From: Kaistella jeonii
GTDB lineage: Bacteria > Bacteroidota > Bacteroidia > Flavobacteriales > Weeksellaceae
Assembly: GCF_000812865.1 (NCBI RefSeq)
Contig: NZ_JSYL01000001.1
Location: 310,001-374,000, forward strand
Reading direction: 5' to 3'
DNA length: 64,000 nt
The notes below the pieces were generated by a model. That model was not told where the DNA came from, ran no database searches, and was given only the letters and a program-made list of their open reading frames with translations. Of this stretch, positions 8,748 through 26,778 are shown one piece after another. Every line of letters starts with the position of its first letter. Position 1 is the first letter of the stretch. The translations under genes were made by a program, and so were the position numbers.

Positions 8748-8796
8748 TATTTAAAATAAGTATCGCTGTTAAATTTTAAAGTTTGCTAATTTAATA

Positions 8797-8804
8797 TATC
8801 TTTG
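8797..8804 (+). promoter_or_regulatory. -7 box before the InsA-like gene
   Basis: TATCTTTG matches TAnnTTTG, 16 bases before the ATG at 8821. No clean -33 at the usual spacing. It is back to back with the pyr promoter on the other strand. Confidence 0.6.
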
Positions 8805-8820
8805 CTAAAAAGATATAGTT

Positions 8821-9237
8821 ATGCCAAATTCCTGTCCTAAATGTAAGGAGAAAAACATTGTAAAAAGTGGTATCATCAATGAGAGACAACGATTTCTATG
8901 TAAGGATTGCAGCTACTATTTCACCGTCAAAAAATTAGGCAAACAAATAGATGATTATGTTGTCACCAAAGCGCTCCAACTCTATCTGGAAGGTTTAAGT
9001 TATCGCGAGATTGAGAGAATCATTGGTGTTTCTCACAACACGGTGAGTTCCTGGATCAAAAAGTACAATATCACAAGACCGCCTCACTCTGATTTTCATC
9101 CGGTTTATAAAGTTTTCAAACATACCGAACTTTTGGAATATATGTCAAAGGAGGAAAACATAAAAGGTTCAGGACTTGTCATCACTGAGTTTGGCGATAA
9201 ATATATGATGATCAAATGGGAGCGGTTTAAAAAATAA
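8821..9237 (+). CDS. Orphan IS1-InsA-like zinc-ribbon/HTH protein
   Basis: 138 residues. N-terminal zinc ribbon with Cys5, Cys8, Cys27 and Cys30 (CPKC...CKDC), then a helix-turn-helix (about 50-80, 'EGLSYREIERIIGVSHNTVS') of the kind found in IS1 InsA and related transposase N-termini. The C-terminal 50 residues are unlike InsA. There is no InsB/DDE catalytic frame after it, no terminal inverted repeats were seen, and it has its own promoter box. By inference it is a domesticated DNA-binding protein rather than an active element, and its placement before a carboxylate-use block makes a regulator plausible. Target unknown. Confidence 0.7.
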   Translation: MPNSCPKCKEKNIVKSGIINERQRFLCKDCSYYFTVKKLGKQIDDYVVTKALQLYLEGLSYREIERIIGVSHNTVSSWIKKYNITRPPHSDFHPVYKVFKHTELLEYMSKEENIKGSGLVITEFGDKYMMIKWERFKK

Positions 9238-16017: not shown

Positions 16018-17922
16018 ATGATGAAAGCAAATGAAATGTTTATAGAAAGTATTGCTCACAAAGAAAAATTTTGGGCAGAACAGGCAGAAAAAATCGAATG
16101 GTTTAAGAAGCCAACCCATATCTTAACTGATGATGGTGAAAATTATCCAACTTGGTTTGCAGATGGCGAATTGAACACGTGTTTTTTGGCGGTTGACAAA
16201 CATGTTAATGATGGTTTTGGCGATCAGGTTGCAATTATTTACGATTCACCAGTTACTAATAGAATTATTAAATATACCTATAGTCAAGTTTTAGAACACG
16301 TTTCGAAATTTGCAGGCGGACTGAAAAAATTGGGTTTAGAAAAAGGCGATACTGCTATAATTTATATGCCGATGATTCCAGAATCTGTGTTTGCAATGTT
16401 GGCTTGTGCGAGATTGGGCGTTACGCATTCCGTGGTTTTTGGCGGATTTGCACCACAAGAATTGGCAATTAGAATTGATGATTGCAATCCAAAAGCGATT
16501 ATTACCGCAAGCTCAGGAATGGAAGTTTCGCGCAGAATTCCGTATTTGCCATTTGTGAAAGAAGCGATAAGCATGTCGGAACACCAACCGGAACATATCG
16601 TTGCATTTGATCGGAAATTACTTGGAAATCGCGTTGATTTCAAAAATGATTCTTCGCTCACGGATTTTGAAAAATTAATGACCGAATCTGAACCAACCGA
16701 TTGCGTTCCGGTAGAATCTACACATCCTTTATATATCCTTTACACTTCTGGAACGACAGGAAAACCAAAAGGAGTTATTCGCGATAACGGTGGTCATGCA
16801 GTTGCGATGAAGTTTTCGATGCAAAATATTTATGGTGTAAAAGAAGGAGAAACATTCTGGGCAGCTTCCGATATTGGTTGGGCAGTTGGACACAGTTATT
16901 CGGTTTACGGTCCACTCATCAACAGAAATACAACCGTTATTTTCGAAGGAAAACCAATTGGAACTCCAGATGCTGGAACATTTTGGCGCGTGATTGAAGA
17001 GCATAAAGTTGCCGTAATGTTCACGGCTCCAACTGCAATTAGAGCAATTAAAAAAGAAGATCCGGAAGGAAAATTTTTAAAAAAATATGATCTATCCTCG
17101 TTGAGAACGCAGTTTTTAGCAGGCGAAAGATGCGATGTTGCAACCCTCGATTGGTTTGATGAATTTGTTGGAGTTCCCGCAATCGACCATTGGTGGCAAA
17201 CTGAATCAGGTTGGCCAATGTTAGGATTAATGCCCGGAATTGAAGATGTAAAAATTAAAAGAGCTTCAGCCGGAAAACCAATTCCAGGATACGATATTAA
17301 AATTTTTAGTGAAGAAGGTTATGAATTGGAATCCCATCACGAAGGTTATTTGGTCATTAAACTACCGTTAGCGCCAGGAGCAATGATGGGAATTTGGGGC
17401 GATCCGGAACGTTTTAAATTTGGATATTTAGCAAAATTCCCGGGATATTATTTTTCTGGAGACGGCGCGATAAAAGATGAAGACGGTTATGTTTTCGTGA
17501 CGGGAAGAGTTGATGATGTGATCAATGTTGCAGGACATCGACTTTCAACCGCAGAAATGGAAGAAGTTGTTGCCGCCCATAAAGAAGTCGCCGAATGTTG
17601 CGTGGTCGGAATCGATGATGATTTGAAAGGTCAAATTCCTTTTGCGATTGCGGTTTTAAAATCAGGTTCGAAAGTGGATGAGAAGACTTTGGAAAAAGAA
17701 CTGGTTGTATTAATTCGGGAGAAAATTGGTCCCGTCGCAAGTATGAAAAATGCTTTGGTGGTGAATCGATTACCAAAAACTCGTTCAGGTAAAATTTTAC
17801 GAAAACTCATAAGAACGATGCTGGATGGGAAGGATTATCAAATGCCATCGACTATTGATGATGAAAGTGTTGTGGAAGAATTGCAATTAAAAATGAATGA
17901 CTATAAACAGAAATATCTCTAA
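16018..17922 (+). CDS. prpE: Propionyl-CoA synthetase-like acyl-CoA synthetase
   Basis: 634 residues, AMP-forming ANL family. It activates a short-chain acid to acyl-AMP, then acyl-CoA. P-loop YTSGTTGKPKG (about 242-252), 'WWQTESGWPM' A5 motif, 'GRVDDVINVAGHRLST' hinge and catalytic Lys592 in KTRSGKIL. The N-terminal 'VDKHVNDG...IYDSPVTN' and the 'RDNGGHAVA' and 'ESGWPM' variants follow PrpE/ACSS3 rather than Acs, so propionate is the likelier substrate, with acetate also possible. It lies directly after the receiver gene and before acs, presumably under control of the sensor pair. Start chosen at the first of two adjacent ATGs. Confidence 0.78.
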   Translation: MMKANEMFIESIAHKEKFWAEQAEKIEWFKKPTHILTDDGENYPTWFADGELNTCFLAVDKHVNDGFGDQVAIIYDSPVTNRIIKYTYSQVLEHVSKFAGGLKKLGLEKGDTAIIYMPMIPESVFAMLACARLGVTHSVVFGGFAPQELAIRIDDCNPKAIITASSGMEVSRRIPYLPFVKEAISMSEHQPEHIVAFDRKLLGNRVDFKNDSSLTDFEKLMTESEPTDCVPVESTHPLYILYTSGTTGKPKGVIRDNGGHAVAMKFSMQNIYGVKEGETFWAASDIGWAVGHSYSVYGPLINRNTTVIFEGKPIGTPDAGTFWRVIEEHKVAVMFTAPTAIRAIKKEDPEGKFLKKYDLSSLRTQFLAGERCDVATLDWFDEFVGVPAIDHWWQTESGWPMLGLMPGIEDVKIKRASAGKPIPGYDIKIFSEEGYELESHHEGYLVIKLPLAPGAMMGIWGDPERFKFGYLAKFPGYYFSGDGAIKDEDGYVFVTGRVDDVINVAGHRLSTAEMEEVVAAHKEVAECCVVGIDDDLKGQIPFAIAVLKSGSKVDEKTLEKELVVLIREKIGPVASMKNALVVNRLPKTRSGKILRKLIRTMLDGKDYQMPSTIDDESVVEELQLKMNDYKQKYL

Positions 17923-18061: not shown

Positions 18062-19969
18062 ATGAAAAATTATGTGATAGACGATTTGCCCGATTATTTT
18101 AAACAGTACAAAAAATCGATTAAAAACCCAAAAAAATTCTGGGATAAAGTGGCTGATGAGAATTTTGTTTGGTATCAACGGTGGTCAAAGGTCGTTGCTT
18201 ACGATATGCAGGAAGCGAAAATTGAATGGTTCAAAAATGCCAAACTTAATATTACGAAAAACTGTATTGACCGGCATTTAAACGAACGTGGTACCAAAAC
18301 CGCAATTATTTTTGAACCTAATGATCCAAAAGAGGAAGCACAACATATTTCTTACAGCGAATTGCGCGACCGTGTGTGTAAAATGGCAAATGTATTGCGA
18401 GATTTAGGTGTTGAAAAAGGCGATCGTGTTTGTATTTATTTGCCTATGATTCCTGAATTGGCGGTGACCATGTTGGCTTGTGCGAGATTAGGTGCAGTTC
18501 ATTCTGTTATTTTTGCAGGATTTTCTGCACAGGCTGTAGAATCTAGAGTAAATGATTGCGGTGCGAAAATGATTGTTTGTTCTGATGGAAGTTTCCGGGG
18601 AACAAAATCAATTGATTTGAAAGGAATCATTGATGAAGCCGTAGAAAAATGTCCGACTGTTGAGAAAGTTTTGGTCGTGAAAAGAACTGGTGGCGAAGTG
18701 AAAATGAAGGAAGGAAGAGATCTTTGGTTGGCGCCGCTTTATGACAAAGCGCCGTCTGATTTTATTTCGGTGATCATGGACGCGGAAGATCCGTTGTTTA
18801 TTTTATACACTTCTGGATCGACTGGAAAACCAAAAGGAATGCTGCATACAACAGCAGGTTTTATGGTGTTTACGGCTTATACTTTTAAAAATGTATTCAA
18901 TTATAAAGAGAATGACATTTATTGGTGTACCGCAGATATTGGCTGGATTACAGGACATTCTTATATTTTGTACGGACCACTTGCGAATGGCGCGACGACC
19001 GTTATTTTTGAAGGAGTTCCGACTTATCCGCAACCGGATCGTTTCTGGGAAGTTATTGAAAAACATAAAATAACGCAGTTTTACACGGCTCCTACTGCGA
19101 TTCGTGCGCTTGCAAAGGAATCTTATGAATGGGTGGAGAAACATGATTTGTCTAGTTTGAGAGTAATTGGATCCGTTGGTGAACCTATTAATGATGAAGC
19201 GTGGCACTGGTATAATGATCACGTTGGCAAGAGAAAATGCCCAATTGTTGATACGTGGTGGCAAACAGAAACTGGAGGAATTATGATTTCGCCTTTGCCC
19301 TTTATCACACCGACGAAACCGACTTATGCGACTTTGCCACTGCCTGGAATTCAGCCCGTTTTGATGGATGATAAACGAAATGAAATTACAGGAAATCAAG
19401 TGGATGGAAATTTATGCATCCGTTTTCCATGGCCGGGAATTGCAAGAACAATTTGGGGCGATCATCAAAGATATAAAGAAACTTATTTTACAGCATTTCC
19501 TGGAAAATATTTTACCGGAGATGGCGCGTTGAGAGATGAAGTTGGCTATTATAGAATTACCGGTCGAGTTGATGATGTAATCATTGTTTCCGGACATAAT
19601 CTTGGAACAGCTCCGATCGAGGATAGTGTGAATTTACATCCAGCCGTGGCGGAATCTGCGATTGTCGGTTATCCACACGATGTGAAAGGAAGTGCCCTTT
19701 ACGGTTTTGTAATGTTGAAAGACAGTGGTGAGGAGCGTGATAAAGATAATTTGAGGAAAGAAATTAATGGTGTGATCTCCGATACGATTGGGCCAATTGC
19801 GAAACTGGATAAAATACAGTTTGTTTCTGCGTTGCCAAAAACCCGTTCAGGAAAAATAATGCGTCGAATCTTGAGAAAAATTGCGGAAGGAGATTTTGCT
19901 AATTTCGGTGATATTTCTACTCTTTTGAATCCTGAAATTGTGGAGGAAATTAAGAATGAGAAGATCTAA
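18062..19969 (+). CDS. acs: Acetyl-CoA synthetase
   Basis: 635 residues, matching Acs length. Makes acetyl-CoA from acetate, ATP and CoA. N-terminal ACAS_N segment (FWDKVADENFVWYQRW), P-loop YTSGSTGKPKG (about 248-258), 'DTWWQTETGG' motif with the Trp that limits the acyl pocket to two carbons, hinge 'GRVDDVIIVSGH', and catalytic Lys598 in KTRSGKIMRR, the usual site of regulatory acetylation. Lies 139 bp after the prpE-like gene, the gap holding an intergenic repeat. With the SLC5 kinase upstream this reproduces the CrbS/CrbR-acs pairing known from gammaproteobacteria. Confidence 0.96.
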   Translation: MKNYVIDDLPDYFKQYKKSIKNPKKFWDKVADENFVWYQRWSKVVAYDMQEAKIEWFKNAKLNITKNCIDRHLNERGTKTAIIFEPNDPKEEAQHISYSELRDRVCKMANVLRDLGVEKGDRVCIYLPMIPELAVTMLACARLGAVHSVIFAGFSAQAVESRVNDCGAKMIVCSDGSFRGTKSIDLKGIIDEAVEKCPTVEKVLVVKRTGGEVKMKEGRDLWLAPLYDKAPSDFISVIMDAEDPLFILYTSGSTGKPKGMLHTTAGFMVFTAYTFKNVFNYKENDIYWCTADIGWITGHSYILYGPLANGATTVIFEGVPTYPQPDRFWEVIEKHKITQFYTAPTAIRALAKESYEWVEKHDLSSLRVIGSVGEPINDEAWHWYNDHVGKRKCPIVDTWWQTETGGIMISPLPFITPTKPTYATLPLPGIQPVLMDDKRNEITGNQVDGNLCIRFPWPGIARTIWGDHQRYKETYFTAFPGKYFTGDGALRDEVGYYRITGRVDDVIIVSGHNLGTAPIEDSVNLHPAVAESAIVGYPHDVKGSALYGFVMLKDSGEERDKDNLRKEINGVISDTIGPIAKLDKIQFVSALPKTRSGKIMRRILRKIAEGDFANFGDISTLLNPEIVEEIKNEKI

Positions 19970-20330: not shown

Positions 20331-21470
20331 TTGAAAGATTCAAATTGCGATAACGAAGTCCTAATCATTGGCGGCGGTTTAGCAGGTTTAACAAGCGCGA
20401 TACACCTCACGAAAATGGGTTGTAAAGTAATTGTTATTGAGAAGAATTCTTATCCAAAACATAAAGTCTGCGGCGAATACATTTCCAATGAAATCCTTCC
20501 CTATTTTAATTGGTTGAATATAAATATTGAAGAATTAAAGCCGACCCACATTTCAAATTTACAGTTTTCATCAGAGTCTGGACGAATAATCGAAACAAAA
20601 CTTCCGCTTGGCGGTTTTGGAATCAGCCGTTATATTTTAGATTATGCACTTTATAAAAAAGCGCTTTCTCAAAACTGTGAGATCCTAGAAGATCAGGTGA
20701 ATGAAGTGATTTTTAAGGATGATATTTTCGAAGTGCAGTTGGCTTCCGGAAAAACTTTGACGTCAAAAGTAGTTTTGGGTGGGTTTGGAAAACGATCTAA
20801 TTTAGATCTTAAAATGAAGCGAAATTTTCTTCAGAAAAAATCTCCTTGGTTAGCCGTTAAGTCTCATTTTGAAGGAGAATTTGCAGATGACGTCGTTGGC
20901 TTGCATAATTTTAAAGGCGGTTATTGCGGGGTTTCAAAAGTTGAAAACAACTTGCTCAATATCTGTTATTTAACTAATTTTAAATCTTTCAAGAAATATA
21001 AAAACATTGAGGAATTCCAAGAAAAAGTCGTCTCTAAAAATCCACATTTAAAAAATATTTTAGAAAATTCTCAACCTGTTTTTGAAAAACCATTGACAAT
21101 TAGTCAAATTTGTTTTGAGAAAAAAGAAAATGTCGAAAACCATATTTTAATGGTGGGCGATACCGCTGGTTTAATTCATCCCTTATGCGGAAATGGAATG
21201 GCAATGGCGATTCATAGTGCTAAACTAGCTTCAGAACAAACAATAGATTTTTTGTCACATAAAATCTCACGAACGGAAATGGAAAACAACTATTCTTTAA
21301 ACTGGAATAAAAACTTTAAACAAAGATTATGGTATGGCCGACTTTTGGGTAGTACTTTCGAACATTCAAAACTTTCAGAAATTTTGACAACTCTAATTAC
21401 TTACGTTCCCTTTCTGCTTCCTTTAGTTATTAAAAAAACCCATGGTAAAGAAATCACCATCAATCAATAA
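20331..21470 (+). CDS. FAD-dependent oxidoreductase of the type III PKS operon
   Basis: 379 residues, geranylgeranyl-reductase/FixC-like flavoprotein. FAD-binding GGGLAG (14-19) with the Glu at the end of strand 2, a CGEY motif at about 47-50 typical of this subfamily, and the second FAD motif 'VGDTAGLIHPLCGNGMAMAI' (about 275-294). It starts at TTG; the next in-frame ATG would remove half the Rossmann fold. The methyltransferase start overlaps its stop (TAATG). In Streptomyces srsABC a flavoprotein hydroxylates alkylresorcinols made by a type III PKS; a ring hydroxylase or a chain reductase is therefore the likely role. Substrate not determined by sequence. Confidence 0.8.
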   Translation: MKDSNCDNEVLIIGGGLAGLTSAIHLTKMGCKVIVIEKNSYPKHKVCGEYISNEILPYFNWLNINIEELKPTHISNLQFSSESGRIIETKLPLGGFGISRYILDYALYKKALSQNCEILEDQVNEVIFKDDIFEVQLASGKTLTSKVVLGGFGKRSNLDLKMKRNFLQKKSPWLAVKSHFEGEFADDVVGLHNFKGGYCGVSKVENNLLNICYLTNFKSFKKYKNIEEFQEKVVSKNPHLKNILENSQPVFEKPLTISQICFEKKENVENHILMVGDTAGLIHPLCGNGMAMAIHSAKLASEQTIDFLSHKISRTEMENNYSLNWNKNFKQRLWYGRLLGSTFEHSKLSEILTTLITYVPFLLPLVIKKTHGKEITINQ

Positions 21471-22186
21471 TGGCTTTAGACACGACATATAGAACAGATT
21501 TAGAAGAATCAATGGATGATTTTTCGATGGATAACGAAGGATTAGTAACCGCTTTGGATGACATCGCTCGAATTAATCAACTGCTCGGTGGAAATTCCGT
21601 GACTTTAGACGGCGTGAGAACTTTAATTAAGGATTTCCCGAAAGATAAATTGATTACAATTATCGATTTCGGTTGTGGAAGCGGCGATATGTTAAGAATG
21701 CTTTCAAAATATGGAACAGATCATAATCTGAATTTCAAATTAATTGGGATCGATGCTAATGAAGCCACAATTCGACACGCGGAGAAATGTTCTGCCGAAT
21801 TTAAAAACATCACCTATCTCGCTGAAGATATATTTTTATACGATTTTTCTAAATTTAGTATAGATATCGCCCTAATTACGCTTACTTTACATCACTTTAA
21901 AAATGATGGGATCATCAACATAATGAAAGTTATTTACGGTCTTGTTACCAAAGGAATTGTGGTAAATGATCTTCAAAGGAGTAAATTAGCATACCGTCTT
22001 TTTCAGGTGATAATTTTCGTGTTCAGATTAAAAGAAATGACTGCAAATGATGGTTTAATTTCTATTTTGCGGGGATTTAAACGAAAAGATCTGGAGAAAT
22101 TTTCTACCCAATTAAATTTCAAAAAAGTAAATATTAAATGGAAGTGGGCATTCCGCTACCAATGGATTATCACAAAAACTAATTAA
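21470..22186 (+). CDS. SAM-dependent methyltransferase of the type III PKS operon
   Basis: 238 residues, class I Rossmann methyltransferase. Motif I DFGCGSG (66-72) after the strand LITII, motif II acidic residue in LIGIDAN, and a post-I segment 'IALITLTLHHF' of Methyltransf_25 type. It begins within the stop codon of the flavoprotein gene (TAATG). It probably O- or C-methylates the phenolic product of the pathway. It lacks the membrane helices of SrsB, so it is not that enzyme, only a functional analogue by position. A REP-like hairpin fills the gap to the next gene. Confidence 0.82.
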   Translation: MALDTTYRTDLEESMDDFSMDNEGLVTALDDIARINQLLGGNSVTLDGVRTLIKDFPKDKLITIIDFGCGSGDMLRMLSKYGTDHNLNFKLIGIDANEATIRHAEKCSAEFKNITYLAEDIFLYDFSKFSIDIALITLTLHHFKNDGIINIMKVIYGLVTKGIVVNDLQRSKLAYRLFQVIIFVFRLKEMTANDGLISILRGFKRKDLEKFSTQLNFKKVNIKWKWAFRYQWIITKTN

Positions 22187-22191
22187 TAAAA

Positions 22192-22223
22192 GCTGCGGAT
22201 TGCTTCGTACCTCGCAATGACAT
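22192..22223. repeat. REP-like hairpin unit inside the PKS operon
   Basis: GCTGCGGATTGCTTCGTACC followed by TCGCAATGACAT: a stem ATTGC/GCAAT with loop of ten bases. It is the half-unit of the 'cattgcgag...gaagcaat' palindromes scattered in many bacterial genomes. It fills the whole gap up to the PKS start codon at 22224, so it must affect the translation context of that gene. Confidence 0.6.
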
Positions 22224-23276
22224 ATGAGTGTAAAAATAGTTACAGTTGCTAAGCAACTCCCCAAATATTCCCGAAAAACTTCAGAAGTTTTACCTTTTTT
22301 AGATCAATGGTTGGTTAATCAGGACAGCCGTTTTGTGCGTAAAGTCAAAAAGATTTTTGAAGGCGCGGCAGTTGATGAAAGATATTCCATTATGGATCCA
22401 ATTGAAGTTTTCACCGCCACCTCGTTCGAAGATAAAAATGATATTTACGCGCGTGAAGTCGTTTTATTAGGCGAACAGGTTTTGGATAAATCTTTGAAAA
22501 AAGCCAACTGGGATCCGCAGTCTTTGGATTACATTATCACCGTAAGTTGTACTGGAATTATGATTCCATCGCTTGATGCTTATCTGATCAATAAATTAAA
22601 TTTACGTCAGGATATCGTTCGTTTACCCGTTACAGAAATGGGTTGTGCAGCGGGTGTTTCTGGAATTATTTATGCTAAAAATTTCCTTCAGGCAAATCCT
22701 GGAAAACGTGCCGCCGTGATTGCCGTTGAAAGTCCGACCGCTACATTTCAGTTAGAAGATTTTTCAATGGCTAATATTGTGAGTGCAGCGATTTTCGGTG
22801 ATGGTGCTGCTTGCGTCCTACTATCTTCCGAAGAAAATGCGGAAGGTCCAGAAATCTTAGCAGAGGAAATGTACCATTTTTATAACAATGAACACATGAT
22901 GGGTTTCAAACTGACCAATTCTGGATTACAAATGATTTTAGATATTGAAGTTCCAGATACGATCGGTGAACATTTCCCAAATATTATTCATCCTTTTTTG
23001 GCCAAACAAAATTTAGAGATTAAGGATGTCGACTACCTTATTTTTCATCCAGGTGGAAAAAAGATCGTGCAAATGGTCGAAGGTTTATTTTCTGATTTGG
23101 GTAAAAATATTGATACAACAAAAGAAATTTTAAGACTTTATGGAAATATGTCGAGTGCAACCGTACTCTTTGTTTTAGAAGAAATAATGAATCAAAAACC
23201 AAATAAAGGCGAGAAAGGATTGATGTTAAGTTTCGGACCTGGATTTTCTGCACAACGAGTTTTATTGGAATGGTAA
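22224..23276 (+). CDS. Type III polyketide synthase (chalcone/stilbene synthase family)
   Basis: 350 residues, the normal size. Catalytic triad intact: Cys141 (EMGCAAG), His275 (IFHPGGKK), Asn308 (YGNMSSATV), and 'GFGPG' variant SFGPGFSAQ near the C-terminus. Such enzymes extend an acyl starter with malonyl-CoA and cyclise it to pyrones, resorcinols or similar rings, without an ACP for extension. Here the operon also encodes an ACP, KS, dehydratase and FabI-like reductase, suggesting that the starter is a chain built locally and handed over as acyl-ACP, as in alkylresorcinol systems. The gene starts just after a REP-like hairpin and overlaps the SDR gene by 7 bp. Product unknown. Confidence 0.93.
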   Translation: MSVKIVTVAKQLPKYSRKTSEVLPFLDQWLVNQDSRFVRKVKKIFEGAAVDERYSIMDPIEVFTATSFEDKNDIYAREVVLLGEQVLDKSLKKANWDPQSLDYIITVSCTGIMIPSLDAYLINKLNLRQDIVRLPVTEMGCAAGVSGIIYAKNFLQANPGKRAAVIAVESPTATFQLEDFSMANIVSAAIFGDGAACVLLSSEENAEGPEILAEEMYHFYNNEHMMGFKLTNSGLQMILDIEVPDTIGEHFPNIIHPFLAKQNLEIKDVDYLIFHPGGKKIVQMVEGLFSDLGKNIDTTKEILRLYGNMSSATVLFVLEEIMNQKPNKGEKGLMLSFGPGFSAQRVLLEW

Positions 23277-24067
23277 GAAGATTTGAAAATACAAATTATT
23301 GGGCTTTAATCTTGGGCGGAAGTTCAGGATTAGGTTTGGCTTCTGCGAAGAAATTAGCTTCTGAAGGGATGAATATTTGTATTATTCATCGAAGTTCTCG
23401 TACTGAAATGGAAACTATTAACCAAGAATTTTCTTTAATTAAAAACGAGAATATCCAATTTTTAAGTTTAAATAAAGATGTTTTAAATCCGCAGCATCAA
23501 AAGGATGTTTTAACAGAATTAAAGACGGCATTAGGTTCAGAAGCAAAGATTCGATGTCTTTTACACAGTATTGCCAAAGGAAATTTAAAGCCAATGACAG
23601 GACTGGAAAATGAAAGTTTATCTACCGATGATTTTGCAATTACCCTTCAAGCCATGGCAACCAGTTTGTACGATTGGACAAAATTAATTTTCAACGAAAA
23701 TCTATTTGCTGAAGATGCAAGAGTTCTCGCGTTTACAAGTGAAGGAAGTTCAAAACCTATCAATAATTATGGCGCAGTTTCTGCCGCAAAAGCTGCTTTG
23801 GAAGCCATCTCCAGAAATATAGCTTTAGAATTTGCACCTTTCGGTTTACGATCAAATTGTATCCAAGCCGGAGTTACCGACACGAGATCATTACAAATGA
23901 TTCCGGGAAGTGAGGAGATAAAAAAAATTACCAAAAAACGCAATCCATTTAAAAGATTGACCAAACCAGAAGATGTGGGAAATGTCGTCAGCTTATTATG
24001 TCAGGACGAAGCTTCGTGGATCAATGGTTGTGTAATTCCGGTCGATGGTGGCGAACATTTGAGTTAA
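23270..24067 (+). CDS. FabI/FabL-like short-chain dehydrogenase (enoyl-ACP reductase type)
   Basis: 265 residues. Rossmann motif GGSSGLGLA (16-24) and active-site Tyr167-x6-Lys174 (YGAVSAAK). The six-residue gap is that of the divergent SDRs FabI/FabL; classical ketoreductases have three. 'EFAPFGLRSNCIQAGVTDTRS' and the C-terminal 'INGCVIPVDGGEHL' complete the fold. The likely reaction is NAD(P)H-dependent saturation of enoyl-ACP in the operon's own chain-building cycle. Start overlaps the PKS stop by 7 bp. A ketoreductase-only FabG is not in the operon and would come from primary metabolism. Confidence 0.8.
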   Translation: MVRRFENTNYWALILGGSSGLGLASAKKLASEGMNICIIHRSSRTEMETINQEFSLIKNENIQFLSLNKDVLNPQHQKDVLTELKTALGSEAKIRCLLHSIAKGNLKPMTGLENESLSTDDFAITLQAMATSLYDWTKLIFNENLFAEDARVLAFTSEGSSKPINNYGAVSAAKAALEAISRNIALEFAPFGLRSNCIQAGVTDTRSLQMIPGSEEIKKITKKRNPFKRLTKPEDVGNVVSLLCQDEASWINGCVIPVDGGEHLS

Positions 24068-24502
24068 ATGAATACTTCAGAAATTTTAGAAAAACTACCG
24101 TACACTACTCCATTTTTATTCGTGGATAATTTGGTCAGCATTGATGAAAATGGTGCAAAAGGAACTTTCACTTTTAAAGAAGATTTAGATTTCTACAAAG
24201 GTCATTTTAAAAACAATCCAATAACTCCTGGGGTAATTTTAATAGAAACCATGGCACAAATCGGACTGGTTTGTTTAGGAATTTTTCTGGTTGGAGATGA
24301 TTTAAATGAAGAAAATCAGATTGGTTTAACTTCGACTGATATCGAATTTGTAAAACCCGTTTTTCCGGGGGAAAAAGTGACCGTTATTTCAGAGAAAATT
24401 TACTTTAGATTTAATAAACTAAAATGCAAAGTTAAGATGCTGAACGAAAATACAGAAATCGTTTGTGAAGGAACAATCGCGGGAATTATTAAAGTCAAGT
24501 AG
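24068..24502 (+). CDS. FabZ-like 3-hydroxyacyl-ACP dehydratase
   Basis: 144-residue hotdog-fold protein. Catalytic His46 (YKGHFKNNPITPGV) and Glu60 (ILIETMAQ) sit in the exact FabZ spacing. It would remove water from 3-hydroxyacyl-ACP. It begins right after the SDR stop codon and ends one base before the KS start, so the operon is tightly packed. Sequence is more divergent than housekeeping FabZ, consistent with a dedicated copy. Confidence 0.88.
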   Translation: MNTSEILEKLPYTTPFLFVDNLVSIDENGAKGTFTFKEDLDFYKGHFKNNPITPGVILIETMAQIGLVCLGIFLVGDDLNEENQIGLTSTDIEFVKPVFPGEKVTVISEKIYFRFNKLKCKVKMLNENTEIVCEGTIAGIIKVK

Positions 24503-24503
24503 G

Positions 24504-25775
24504 ATGGAAAGAAGAGTTGTTATCACGGGATTAGGAGTCGTTGCACCAAATGGCGTTGGTTTGGAAAATTTCCGTTCTGCTTTAATGGAAGGATGCTCTG
24601 GAATTCAGTTTGATCAACAATTGGCAGACTTGCAATTTTCCTGTCAGGTTTCCGGAACTCCACCAATTGATAAAGAAAATTTAAACCAATATTTTACGGA
24701 TTTAGAATTACGGAATTTCAATTCGACTGGAATTATGTACGGTGTTATCGCAGGTTTAGATGCCTGGAAAGATGCGGGTTTAAAACCATCAGAAGAAGAA
24801 AATCCAGATTGGGATAGCGGAACAATATTCGGCGCAGGTACTTCTGGAATTGAGAAATTTCGGGAAAGCATTTATAAAATTGATGCACTGCAAACTAGAA
24901 GATTAGGAAGTACCGCAGTTTCGCAAACCATGAACAGCGGAATTTCTGCGTATTTAGGAGGAAAATTAGGTTTAGGAAATCAAGTCACTACCAATTCTTC
25001 CGCTTGTACAACAGGAACAGAAAGTATTTTAATGGCTTTTGACCGCATAAAAGCTGGAAAAGCAAAACGCATTTTAGCCGGAAGCACAAGTGATTCCGGT
25101 CCGTACATTTGGGCAGGTTTTGATGCAATCAAAGTTTGTAATTTTAAATCGAATGACAGTCCAGAAAAAGCTTCTCGGCCGATGAGTGCTTCTGCAGCGG
25201 GTTTTGTTCCCGGCAGTGGCGCCGGAGCCTTAGTGATCGAAGATTTGGAATCTGCATTGGCAAGAAATGCAAAAATTTATTGCGAAATATTGGGTGGAAA
25301 TCTAAATAGCGGCGGTCAACGTGGCGGTGGAAGTATGACCGCGCCCAACTCTACTGCAGTTCAGAAATGCGTAAAAGATGCCATATCAGATGCTGGAATT
25401 GATTCAAATGAAATCGATTATATCAGCGGACATTTAACTGCAACTTCGAAAGATGCTACAGAAATTCAGAATTTATCAACCGCTTTAAATCGATCTGGAA
25501 ACGATTTTCCCTATATTAATTCATTAAAAGCTTTAACAGGACATTGCCTTTCTGCAGCAGCAAGTATTGAATGTGTGGCAACTGTTTTACAACTGTCAGA
25601 AAACTTTATCGCACCCAATATTAACTGCGAAGATTTAAATCCAGAAATTTCAGAGATTATCGACTCAGATTGTATTCCACAGCATTTAATCCAAAAAGTA
25701 ATTAATATCGCAGCGAAAGTCAGTTTTGGTTTTGGCGATGTGAACGGATGTATTATCTTTAAAAAATATTCTTAA
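24504..25775 (+). CDS. Beta-ketoacyl-ACP synthase (FabF-like) of the PKS operon
   Basis: 423 residues from the ATG at 24504, which gives MERRVVITGLGVVAPNG, the usual KS opening; the open frame reaches 13 codons further into the dehydratase gene but lacks family support there. Cys168 (SSACTTG), His310 and His347 (ALTGH) form a complete condensing triad. The first histidine region reads ISGHLTATSKDATE instead of the common VNAHGTST, a mark of a specialised clade. With intact triad it is a working condensing enzyme and not a chain-length factor. It should extend the acyl chain on the operon's ACP. Confidence 0.9.
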   Translation: MERRVVITGLGVVAPNGVGLENFRSALMEGCSGIQFDQQLADLQFSCQVSGTPPIDKENLNQYFTDLELRNFNSTGIMYGVIAGLDAWKDAGLKPSEEENPDWDSGTIFGAGTSGIEKFRESIYKIDALQTRRLGSTAVSQTMNSGISAYLGGKLGLGNQVTTNSSACTTGTESILMAFDRIKAGKAKRILAGSTSDSGPYIWAGFDAIKVCNFKSNDSPEKASRPMSASAAGFVPGSGAGALVIEDLESALARNAKIYCEILGGNLNSGGQRGGGSMTAPNSTAVQKCVKDAISDAGIDSNEIDYISGHLTATSKDATEIQNLSTALNRSGNDFPYINSLKALTGHCLSAAASIECVATVLQLSENFIAPNINCEDLNPEISEIIDSDCIPQHLIQKVINIAAKVSFGFGDVNGCIIFKKYS

Positions 25776-25794
25776 TAAAAAATTAATTCTCAAT

Positions 25795-26049
25795 ATGAAC
25801 AAAGAAGAGGCTATTCAAAAATTAAAAGTAATTGTAAAACCTTATGTGAAAGATGAGGCTGCATTAGAAAACATCAATGAAAACACAGATTTCATAAATG
25901 ATTTAAATATTAATTCTGCTAATTTGGTTGATGTTATTTTAGATGTGGAAGAAGTTTTCGATATTGAGATCGATGCGGATTCGATGGAGAAAATGCGTGA
26001 TGTAAAATCTGCATTGGCCGTGATTGAAGAGAAACTATCTGCGAAATAA
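25795..26049 (+). CDS. Acyl carrier protein of the PKS operon
   Basis: 84 residues, acidic four-helix carrier. The phosphopantetheine Ser is Ser41 in DLNINSANLVD, aligned with the DSL Ser of standard ACP, though the flanking Asp and Leu are Asn and Ala. Helix 2/3 'VEEVFDIEIDADSMEKM' is typical. It is the last gene of the operon, 19 bp after the KS. The changed DSL motif suggests that it is loaded or recognised differently from the housekeeping ACP. Confidence 0.9.
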   Translation: MNKEEAIQKLKVIVKPYVKDEAALENINENTDFINDLNINSANLVDVILDVEEVFDIEIDADSMEKMRDVKSALAVIEEKLSAK

Positions 26050-26124: not shown

Positions 26125-26778
26125 ATGAAATTTTTTATCGACACTGCCAATCTTGAGCAAATTAAAGAAGCACAGGATTTAGGAATTTTAGATGGAGTAA
26201 CTACCAATCCATCCTTAATGGCAAAAGAAGGAATCAGTGGGAAAGAAGCTGTTCTAAACCATTATAAAACCATTTGCGAAATCGTAGACGGCGATATTTC
26301 TGCGGAAGTTCTGAGCACGACTTATGAAGAAATGATTAAGGAAGGTGATGAATTAGCAGCGATTCACCCAAACATCGTAGTTAAAATTCCAATGATCAAA
26401 GACGGGATCAAAGCTTTAAAATATTTCTCCATGAAAGGAATCAAAACCAACTGTACTTTAATTTTTTCTGCCGGACAAGCATTATTGGCGGCGAAAGCGG
26501 GAGCAAACTATGTTTCTCCATTTTTAGGAAGATTAGATGATATTTCTGTCGACGGAATGAACTTGATCGAAGAGATCAGAATTATTTTCGATAACTATAT
26601 GTTTGACACAGAAATCCTGGCAGCGTCGATTCGTTCGCCAATGCACATTATTAATTGTGCGAAAATTGGTGCCGATGCGATTACTTCGCCGTTAGATTCA
26701 ATTCTTAATTTATTGAATCACCCATTAACTGATAAAGGTTTAGCACAGTTTGTTGCGGATGCTAAAAAAATGAGCTAA
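26125..26778 (+). CDS. fsa: Fructose-6-phosphate aldolase/transaldolase, small TalC/Fsa type
   Basis: 217 residues, the short class of transaldolases. Schiff-base Lys87 in VVKIPM, opening [16 protein letters not shown], '[12 protein letters not shown]' and '[17 protein letters not shown]' are all family marks. It acts on sugar phosphates of the non-oxidative pentose phosphate pathway (transaldolase) or cleaves fructose 6-phosphate; the two cannot be told apart here. Own promoter box and strong downstream terminator make it a single-gene unit separate from the ACP gene 75 bp upstream. Confidence 0.93.

What the first reader, a model, noticed from the sequence alone, without database searches (positions are those of the whole stretch)
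20331..26049. Seven-gene operon joining a type III PKS to its own mini fatty-acid synthase
Seven genes (flavoprotein, methyltransferase, type III PKS, FabI-like SDR, FabZ-like dehydratase, KS, ACP) are packed with overlaps or short gaps, the largest being the 37-bp REP-like gap. All visible catalytic residues are intact. Known relatives: Streptomyces srsABC (PKS, methyltransferase, flavoprotein) and Azotobacter ArsA-D, where FAS units feed type III PKSs. Here a discrete type II set without a malonyl transferase, ketoreductase or PPTase would build or edit an acyl-ACP starter, which the PKS turns into a phenolic lipid that is then methylated and oxidised. I know of no characterised product for this exact gene set.
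Basis: partly seen in the sequence, partly recalled or inferred. Interest (0 to 1): 0.78.

Follow-up and report, generated by a model that had tools for sequence, protein, structure and literature searches.

The report
Type III PKS with acyl-feeder genes
A seven-gene bacterial operon joins a polyketide enzyme that probably makes a phenol- or pyrone-type lipid to a small fatty-acid-building kit of its own; related kits lie beside a different lipid-making enzyme in other bacteria, which suggests a reusable feeder module.

Summary
The seven genes are real, contiguous and intact at 20331-26049 (KS start corrected to ATG 24504). The host is a Kaistella species. The genome search found one other full-length KS (FabF-like, beside an ACP). 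In 100 relatives profiled (at least 4 duplicates) the order flavoprotein-methyltransferase-T3PKS-(SDR)-dehydratase-KS-ACP holds; KS is missing in one and ACP in two, at contig ends. Of 296 genomes of the phylum, 25 hold this T3PKS clade and all 25 hold the KS. Most Flavobacterium loci lack the SDR and have a PPTase gene after the ACP; the 14 Weeksellaceae loci lack the PPTase gene. None of 40 sampled other T3PKS loci has the KS/DH/ACP set nearby. The operon looks mosaic: its flavoprotein groups with trio operons, its T3PKS with another lineage. A related SDR-DH-KS-ACP(-PPTase) cassette (KS about 50% identical) lies beside a darB gene in 18 of 21 Mucilaginibacter-type loci, and beside GNAT and glycosyltransferase genes in three others. 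Best reading: a portable acyl-ACP feeder supplies the T3PKS starter; the product is then methylated and oxidised. Feeding and product are inferred. Nine open-access full-text searches showed no product for it.

The parts
20331..21470 (+). FAD-dependent oxidoreductase/monooxygenase (379 aa, TTG start). Model closest to flavin-dependent halogenases and 3-hydroxybenzoate 6-hydroxylase
21470..22186 (+). SAM-dependent methyltransferase (238 aa; PF13649, best NCBIfam PRK06202 below its cut-off)
22198..22221 (+). REP-like repeat core in the 37-bp MT/T3PKS gap; most likely a passenger, not part of the pathway
22224..23276 (+). type III polyketide synthase (350 aa), Cys141-His275-Asn308, diagnostic Phe228
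23270..24067 (+). SDR, FabL-like enoyl-ACP reductase with Tyr167-x6-Lys174 (265 aa)
24068..24502 (+). FabZ-like hotdog dehydratase (144 aa), His46/Glu60
24504..25775 (+). beta-ketoacyl-ACP synthase of a separate cassette clade (423 aa from ATG 24504; the ORF listing start 24465)
25795..26049 (+). dedicated acyl carrier protein (84 aa), Ser41 in an INSANLVD motif instead of DSL

Best explanation
This is a phenolic-lipid operon whose type III PKS is supplied by a dedicated, transferable type II acyl-ACP cassette. Proposed steps, all inferred from families and conserved residues. The one PPTase-family protein found in this genome loads the operon ACP. The operon KS adds malonyl units to a primer acyl chain on that ACP (malonyl-ACP and ketoreduction from housekeeping FabD and FabG, which I did not look for), the operon dehydratase removes water, and the FabL-like SDR reduces the 2-enoyl bond; in most Flavobacterium loci, which lack the SDR, the chain stays unsaturated or is reduced by a housekeeping enzyme. 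The acyl-ACP is passed to Cys141 of the T3PKS, which adds malonyl-CoA units and closes the ring. The methyltransferase methylates the product and the flavoprotein hydroxylates or oxidises it, probably to a methoxylated hydroquinone or quinone lipid. Shown by computation here: the gene set, its integrity, its conservation, its separation from the housekeeping KS, its mosaic descent, and a related cassette beside the dialkylresorcinol synthase gene darB.
For: Gene set and residues. The own genome gave two full-length KS matches (one FabF-like beside an ACP, and this one), three ACPs, two FabA/FabZ-fold matches (the second within a 474-aa frame) and one PPTase-family gene. The operon KSs lie outside FabF, FabB, flexirubin-cluster and E. 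coli aryl-polyene KSs (100/100). Order conserved in 100 loci, at least 4 duplicates. Phylogenetic profile: T3PKS clade in 25 of 296 genomes, KS in 29 of 296, all 25 shared. 40 sampled other T3PKS loci: 0 with KS/DH/ACP in the 9.5-16 kb read, 21 with methyltransferase plus flavoprotein, 12 with an ICMT gene, 7 with neither. Related cassette beside darB in 18 of 21 Mucilaginibacter-type loci, divergently oriented; DarB checked against its curated cut-off in two of them and DarH in one; the INSANLVD ACP motif was seen in 20 of these 21 (not displayed for L219). CylI, among the nearest solved structures, is described as taking its chain from ACP-bound modules and making an alkylresorcinol (PMC8086630, passages). 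Acyl-ACP use by T3PKSs is published for ArsB/ArsC, Gcs and SCO7671 (PMC6274091, passages). A planctomycetal T3PKS-methyltransferase-FAD-oxidoreductase set gave methylated alkylresorcinols in C. glutamicum (PMC10896814, passages).
Against: No biochemistry or metabolite exists. No ketoreductase or malonyl transferase is in the operon. The T3PKS lineage groups with ICMT-associated enzymes (100/100 in the reduced set; 94/77 in the 72-row tree), which from memory resemble BpsA-BpsB and make mainly alkylpyrones, and its top fold match PKS11 makes alkylpyrones. At the site that I align with ArsB Trp281/ArsC Gly284 it has Phe in 100 of 100, so neither the resorcinol nor the pyrone residue. The planctomycetal oxidoreductase did not yield quinones in the heterologous host (PMC10896814), so the oxidation step is weak. 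The SDR is absent from 77 of 100 relatives and the PPTase gene from 19 of 100 (two cut off at contig ends), so the feeder is not uniform. The DarB linkage is within one genus-level group (possibly one descent), 3 of its 21 loci have no DarB in the 19 kb read, the KS there is only 53% identical (G099), and the three GNAT/glycosyltransferase loci have neither DarB nor T3PKS in 18 kb and a different ACP motif.
Confidence: 0.55

Rival explanations
1. Hand-over of an unfinished chain: the KS makes a beta-ketoacyl-ACP (or, with the dehydratase, a 2-enoyl-ACP) that the T3PKS takes directly and extends once or twice more, so part of the aromatic ring is made by the type II KS. Loci without SDR would be the default and the SDR a modifier.
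For: 77 of 100 loci lack the reductase. CylI, among the nearest folds, is solved with a beta-ketoacyl substrate (title). DarB-type ketosynthases form cyclohexanediones and resorcinols (title in the reference list of PMC3992019); that DarB joins a 3-oxoacyl and an enoyl chain is recalled.
Against: The conserved dehydratase (100 of 100) is pointless for a pure beta-ketoacyl hand-over. No direct evidence on chain state.
Confidence: 0.2
2. The cassette makes a second acyl group that is attached to the T3PKS product (as the polyene acid is esterified in flexirubin), or carries the product; it does not make the starter.
For: Related cassettes lie beside a GNAT-family protein and a glycosyltransferase, with no T3PKS in 18 kb, in three genomes, so acyl transfer to other acceptors is plausible.
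Against: No further conserved gene of the operon turned up, but I did not search for acyltransferases; only ten loci were looked at gene by gene, by eye.
Confidence: 0.12
3. The product is a methylated alkylpyrone, not a resorcinol or quinone; feeder role as in the best explanation. (This rival concerns the product only and overlaps with the others.)
For: T3PKS groups with the ICMT-associated lineage, recalled as BpsA-BpsB-like; PKS11 is the top fold and sequence match. No Trp at the aligned ArsB W281 site.
Against: The flavoprotein belongs with that of 12 of the 21 sampled trio loci (35-48% identity in 11, 29% in L161; 100/100 against the nine others), and its model is close to halogenases and a phenol hydroxylase; a pyrone needs no such enzyme. 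The site is aromatic (Phe), not Gly.
Confidence: 0.3
4. The KS/DH/SDR/ACP genes serve ordinary membrane fatty acids (for example cold adaptation) and sit beside the T3PKS by chance.
For: Some host names suggest cold-living Flavobacterium.
Against: 25 of 25 T3PKS-clade genomes carry the KS, and no profiled locus of this clade lacks it except at a contig end; the one genus-mate among the 296 without the T3PKS (G281) also lacks the KS.
Confidence: 0.05

Closest known systems
T3PKS-methyltransferase-FAD oxidoreductase operons: srsABC (Streptomyces griseus), pkqABC (polyketide quinone), planctomycetal clusters
   Same: Same three enzyme classes side by side; the operon's flavoprotein groups with that of 12 of 21 sampled Bacteroidota-phylum trios.
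   Different: Extra SDR-DH-KS-ACP set; a T3PKS from a different lineage than those trio T3PKSs; gene order flavoprotein-MT-T3PKS.
Azotobacter ars operon (FAS feeding ArsB/ArsC)
   Same: An operon-encoded fatty-acid machine beside a T3PKS; acyl transfer from ACP is the proposed link.
   Different: Discrete type II enzymes instead of a FAS with ACP domain; added methyltransferase and flavoprotein; T3PKS not compared by sequence with ArsB/ArsC.
Dialkylresorcinol clusters (darB, darH) of Bacteroidota
   Same: In Mucilaginibacter-type genomes a related SDR-DH-KS-ACP(-PPTase) cassette lies divergently beside darB (18 of 21 loci).
   Different: DarB is a FabH-like ketosynthase; the present genome has only two full-length KS matches; DarB was not searched in it.
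Cylindrocyclophane cyl cluster (ACP CylB and type I modules feeding the T3PKS CylI)
   Same: ACP-bound chain passed to a T3PKS to make an alkylresorcinol; CylI is a near fold match.
   Different: Type I modules, halogenation and dimerisation are not seen here.
Dedicated ACP for serine palmitoyltransferase in Rhodobacteria (PMC9386255, search listing and start of abstract only)
   Same: A specialised ACP supplying one lipid-forming enzyme.
   Different: Co-occurring acyl-CoA synthetase rather than a KS/DH set; different acceptor enzyme.

Membership tests
type III polyketide synthase (CHS-like) | Cys-His-Asn triad and chalcone synthase fold | tested here: met
srs/pkq-type trio operon | methyltransferase and FAD oxidoreductase genes adjacent to the T3PKS | tested here: met
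srs/pkq-type trio operon | T3PKS belongs with the trio T3PKSs (trios of the phylum with a related flavoprotein) | tested here: not met
   AU test rejects the grouping, p 0.0001 (group chosen after the tree was seen, so the p is indicative); T3PKS groups with ICMT-associated T3PKSs 100/100 in this set. SrsA and PkqA themselves were not in the tree
srs/pkq-type trio operon | alkylresorcinol to quinone product | not testable with these tools
   no metabolite data
ars-type FAS-fed T3PKS | FAS with ACP domain (ArsA) in the operon | tested here: not met
   discrete type II enzymes instead
ars-type FAS-fed T3PKS | acyl transfer from ACP to the T3PKS cysteine | not testable with these tools
   needs biochemistry
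ars-type FAS-fed T3PKS | Trp (ArsB, resorcinol) or Gly (ArsC, pyrone) at the cyclisation site | tested here: inconclusive
   Phe228 in 100 of 100; of 40 other T3PKSs 39 have Trp and one (L156) Phe. The column was matched by the MxW motif and the 9-residue spacing to Met293 of ArsC, not by aligning ArsB itself
BpsA-BpsB type (T3PKS with ICMT methyltransferase; the name is recalled) | adjacent ICMT-family gene | tested here: not met
   no ICMT hit in the loci of this clade; present in 12 of 40 sampled other loci
housekeeping FabF/FabI/AcpP set | KS in the FabF clade, single copy | tested here: not met
   FabF NCBIfam 275 bits against cut-off 494
dialkylresorcinol/flexirubin cluster | darB in the operon | tested here: not met
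   none of the seven genes; DarB was not searched in the whole genome
enoyl-ACP reductase FabI/FabL | Tyr-x6-Lys catalytic pair in an SDR (motif recalled) | tested here: met
   Y167/K174 in 23 of 23; best solved match 3oic (B. subtilis FabL by recall). Below the NCBIfam FabL cut-off (140 against 328 bits), so not a curated FabL

The most novel reading that the evidence does not exclude
SDR-DH-KS-ACP-PPTase is a portable acyl-ACP feeder module with its own KS clade, plugged in the course of evolution into at least three kinds of lipid synthesis: a type III PKS, the dialkylresorcinol synthase DarB (both with an INSANLVD-type ACP), and a GNAT/glycosyltransferase locus (with a diverged ACP motif). 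In Kaistella and Flavobacterium it was joined to a hybrid operon made of a trio flavoprotein and methyltransferase and a T3PKS of another lineage, whose Trp-to-Phe change at the cyclisation site gives a product class not yet described.
Probability: 0.4. Interest if true: 0.75.

Novelty: new variant of a known kind. Interest (0 to 1): 0.6.

Why it matters
Type III PKS clusters are among the commoner predicted clusters in Flavobacteriaceae (10.74% and 9% of clusters in two surveys, PMC10734526 and PMC7440613, passages), but I met no product for this one. A dedicated feeder related to one beside a darB gene gives a concrete, testable prediction of where the alkyl chain comes from, and natural parts (KS, ACP) that might steer acyl chains into phenolic lipids. 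The own genus holds both carriers (21) and non-carriers (15) among 36 genomes, so comparative lipid work is possible at once.

Tried and rejected
REP-like gap as a control element: 6 of 14 Weeksellaceae relatives have a 4-bp gene overlap there and the rest gaps of varying content, so it is treated as an insertion.

Flexirubin or aryl-polyene membership of the KS: not supported by the trees, with the tool's warning that several reference rows are long branches and that such joins may be false. That the two CFT073 KSs belong to its aryl-polyene cluster is recalled.

The acetyl-CoA synthetase gene upstream as a pathway member: within 1.5 kb upstream on the same strand in 11 of 14 Weeksellaceae and 32 of 66 of the other named loci, 5 of 20 in the unnamed set, 0 of the 25 loci L157-L181; taken as local synteny.

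DpgA as the T3PKS family (NCBIfam best hit 165 bits against a cut-off of 425): not accepted.

The 306-aa gene beside darB, which I labelled DarA in my scripts by position, matched no NCBIfam family, so I do not claim it is darA.

Search of the KS in the class of the GNAT/glycosyltransferase genomes gave 3 of 198, so that context is rare there. The PF00195 hit at C1:112505 in the own genome was not identified further. FabD, FabG and DarB were not searched in the own genome. PADLOC, PHROGs and RNA families were not searched.
Full report
OBSERVATION. The window holds seven ORFs on the + strand between 20331 and 26049 with at most 37 bp between neighbours. Pfam and NCBIfam place them as a FAD oxidoreductase, a SAM methyltransferase, a type III PKS, an SDR of the enoyl-reductase kind, a FabZ-like dehydratase, a beta-ketoacyl synthase and an ACP. 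The KS most likely starts at ATG 24504, one base after the dehydratase stop codon. Upstream (18062-19969) lies an acetyl-CoA synthetase-like gene and downstream (26125-26778) a transaldolase-family gene; I do not count them in.

HOST. The T3PKS is 99% identical to that of Kaistella antarctica and 97-98% to two other Kaistella records, so the host is very probably a Kaistella species. In the own family 24 of 246 genomes carry a T3PKS match, in 3 of 28 genera; in the own genus 21 of 36.

NOT HOUSEKEEPING. The own genome has five PF00109 matches. Two cover the whole model, one on contig C16 beside an ACP and the operon KS; the other three match 38-47 positions only, and I take them for thiolase-like proteins. 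There are three ACP matches, two FabA/FabZ-fold matches, the other one within a 474-aa frame that I take for the LpxC-FabZ fusion, one PPTase-family gene and 17 matches to the SDR family. The FabF model scores the operon KS at 275 bits against a cut-off of 494. In the tree the C16 KS joins E. coli FabF, while the operon KSs form their own 100/100 group apart from FabB, six flexirubin-cluster KSs and two E. coli aryl-polyene KSs (long branches are flagged there).

CONSERVATION. Flavoprotein, methyltransferase, T3PKS and dehydratase are in 100 of 100, KS in 99 of 100 (L115 runs out of contig; in L056 it is split in two frames) and ACP in 98 of 100 (L082 and L115 run out). The SDR is in 23 of 100 (15 of 80 and 8 of 20). 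A PPTase gene follows the ACP in 81 of 100 (64 of 80 and 17 of 20) but in none of the 14 Weeksellaceae loci. A few loci have other genes inserted. Catalytic residues are invariant. The ACP serine sits in Asn-Ser-Ala in 98 of 98.

PHYLOGENETIC PROFILE. Of 296 genomes drawn from the phylum, 131 have a T3PKS match at E 1e-20; 25 have this clade (69-100% identity) and the rest at most 36%. The KS search over 296 genomes of the phylum gave 29 at E 1e-70: the same 25 and four more. For 40 of the low-identity T3PKS loci I fetched 9.5-16 kb: none shows KS, dehydratase or ACP of this kind; 21 have methyltransferase and flavoprotein, 12 an ICMT-family gene, 7 neither (ICMT named by Pfam in two). One of these 40 genomes, G099, has the cassette on another contig.

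MOSAIC DESCENT. The operon T3PKSs are one clade (100/100) and lie on the side of the mostly ICMT-associated T3PKSs (94/77; 100/98 with L156 added), not with those of the trio operons. In a reduced set of 39 rows operon and ICMT-associated T3PKSs are one side of a branch at 100/100, and an AU test rejects grouping with the trios that have a related flavoprotein (p 0.0001; the group was chosen after the first tree). Yet the operon flavoprotein is 35-48% identical to that of 11 trio loci and 29% to a twelfth (L161), against 26-32% for the T3PKSs of the same loci, although within the operon clade the T3PKS is the more conserved (69-83% against 45-64% in L122-L141). The other nine trio loci have a barely similar flavoprotein. 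In the flavoprotein tree the operon rows group with those twelve trio rows (100/100 against the nine others); the finer nesting is moderate (90/97, 80/72). So tailoring genes and T3PKS seem to come from different sources. This is a tree-based inference.

DIAGNOSTIC RESIDUE. Phe228 is present in 100 of 100 operon T3PKSs; of 40 others 39 have Trp and one (L156) Phe. By motif and spacing I equate it with ArsB Trp281/ArsC Gly284, which set resorcinol against pyrone formation (PMC6274091, passages); the original structure paper is not held.

THE CASSETTE ELSEWHERE. The four extra KS genomes (KS 48-53% identical) carry DH-KS-ACP, two of them with the SDR and one with a PPTase, with no T3PKS in the 18 kb read. 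In G099, by KS identity (94-95%) a Mucilaginibacter, the SDR-DH-KS-ACP-PPTase set runs divergently from a stretch with a 173-aa ORF, a 306-aa gene of no NCBIfam family, darB (635 bits, cut-off 550) and darH (454 bits, cut-off 300). In its genus 48 of 100 genomes have the KS. I fetched 20 of the other 47, picked across the identity range: 17 show the same arrangement with a DarB like that of G099 (one of them, L238, checked at 629 bits; DarB split in L219), and three (L234-L236) show no DarB within 19 kb. In L216-L218 the set lies beside a GNAT-family protein and a GT2 glycosyltransferase (Pfam on L216 and L217; L218 by similarity), and the ACP motif differs there (INSMHVID, LDSFYVID). A tree of 55 KSs puts all cassette KSs in one 100/100 group with T3PKS (99/98), GNAT (96/96) and Mucilaginibacter-type (88/93) subgroups; their order is weakly supported (87/73).

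LITERATURE. Ten full-text searches, nine of them on T3PKS or resorcinol topics, showed no product for this operon in their listings. Only open-licence PMC papers are covered. Of eight papers I read passages found by terms; of PMC9386255 I saw the listing and start of abstract only. T3PKS operons of the trio kind give polyketide quinones reported or suggested as respiratory carriers in Mycobacterium and Streptomyces (PMC9927152, passages). In C. glutamicum a planctomycetal trio gave methylated resorcinols but no quinones (PMC10896814, passages).

MECHANISM. The best-supported reading is a starter feeder. Shown: gene set, integrity, co-inheritance, second KS and ACP copies, mosaic descent, a related cassette beside a dialkylresorcinol synthase gene. 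Inferred: loading, chain building with borrowed FabD and FabG (not searched), hand-over, ring closure, methylation, oxidation. The product class (resorcinol/quinone or pyrone) is open.

VERDICT. Real, widespread in Flavobacterium and Kaistella, without a product that I could find, and more interesting than first described because of the apparently reusable cassette. It is a new variant of a known kind: FAS-fed T3PKSs and trio operons are known; a discrete type II feeder related to one beside darB was not met in the papers I searched.

Noticed in passing
window 22187-22223; L041-L044, L047, L049-L051 near 8770-9000: The methyltransferase/T3PKS junction looks like an insertion hot spot in Weeksellaceae: 6 of 14 loci overlap by ATGA, 8 of 14 have gaps of 36-227 bp, some holding REP-like (GATTGCTTCG..CCTCGCAATGAC) or CTTTGTGACTTTGTGGT-type repeats.
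   Followed up: partly
L046 10934-12013, L047 10891-12003, L048 10890-11969, L049 10900-11991: An antisense gene, of the NADH:flavin oxidoreductase family in L046 (Pfam) and similar by eye in the others, sits between SDR and dehydratase in four loci; L049 has three more genes there.
   Followed up: partly
L216, L217, L218: DH-KS-ACP cassettes (with SDR in L216 only) beside a GNAT-family protein and a GT2 glycosyltransferase; L216 also has a BioF/Kbl/serine-palmitoyltransferase-like gene about 4 kb away. From memory the GNAT protein resembles bacterial ceramide synthase; not tested.
   Followed up: partly
L215 and L219-L238: Mucilaginibacter-type genomes: the cassette lies next to darB in 18 of 21 loci; in three (L234-L236) it stands without DarB within 19 kb.
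   Followed up: partly
window 16018-17922 and 18062-19969: Two tandem acetyl-CoA-synthetase-family genes upstream of the operon; a relative of the nearer one is also just upstream in 11 of 14 Weeksellaceae and 32 of 66 other named loci.
   Followed up: partly
L056 10570-10821 and 10817-11983; L219 4871 and 5764: The KS of this metagenome-assembled Flavobacterium is split between two frames, as is the DarB of L219; assembly errors or broken genes.
   Followed up: no
own genome C2:480850-481047 (L204): A third ACP with a normal DSL motif, with no KS found beside it.
   Followed up: no
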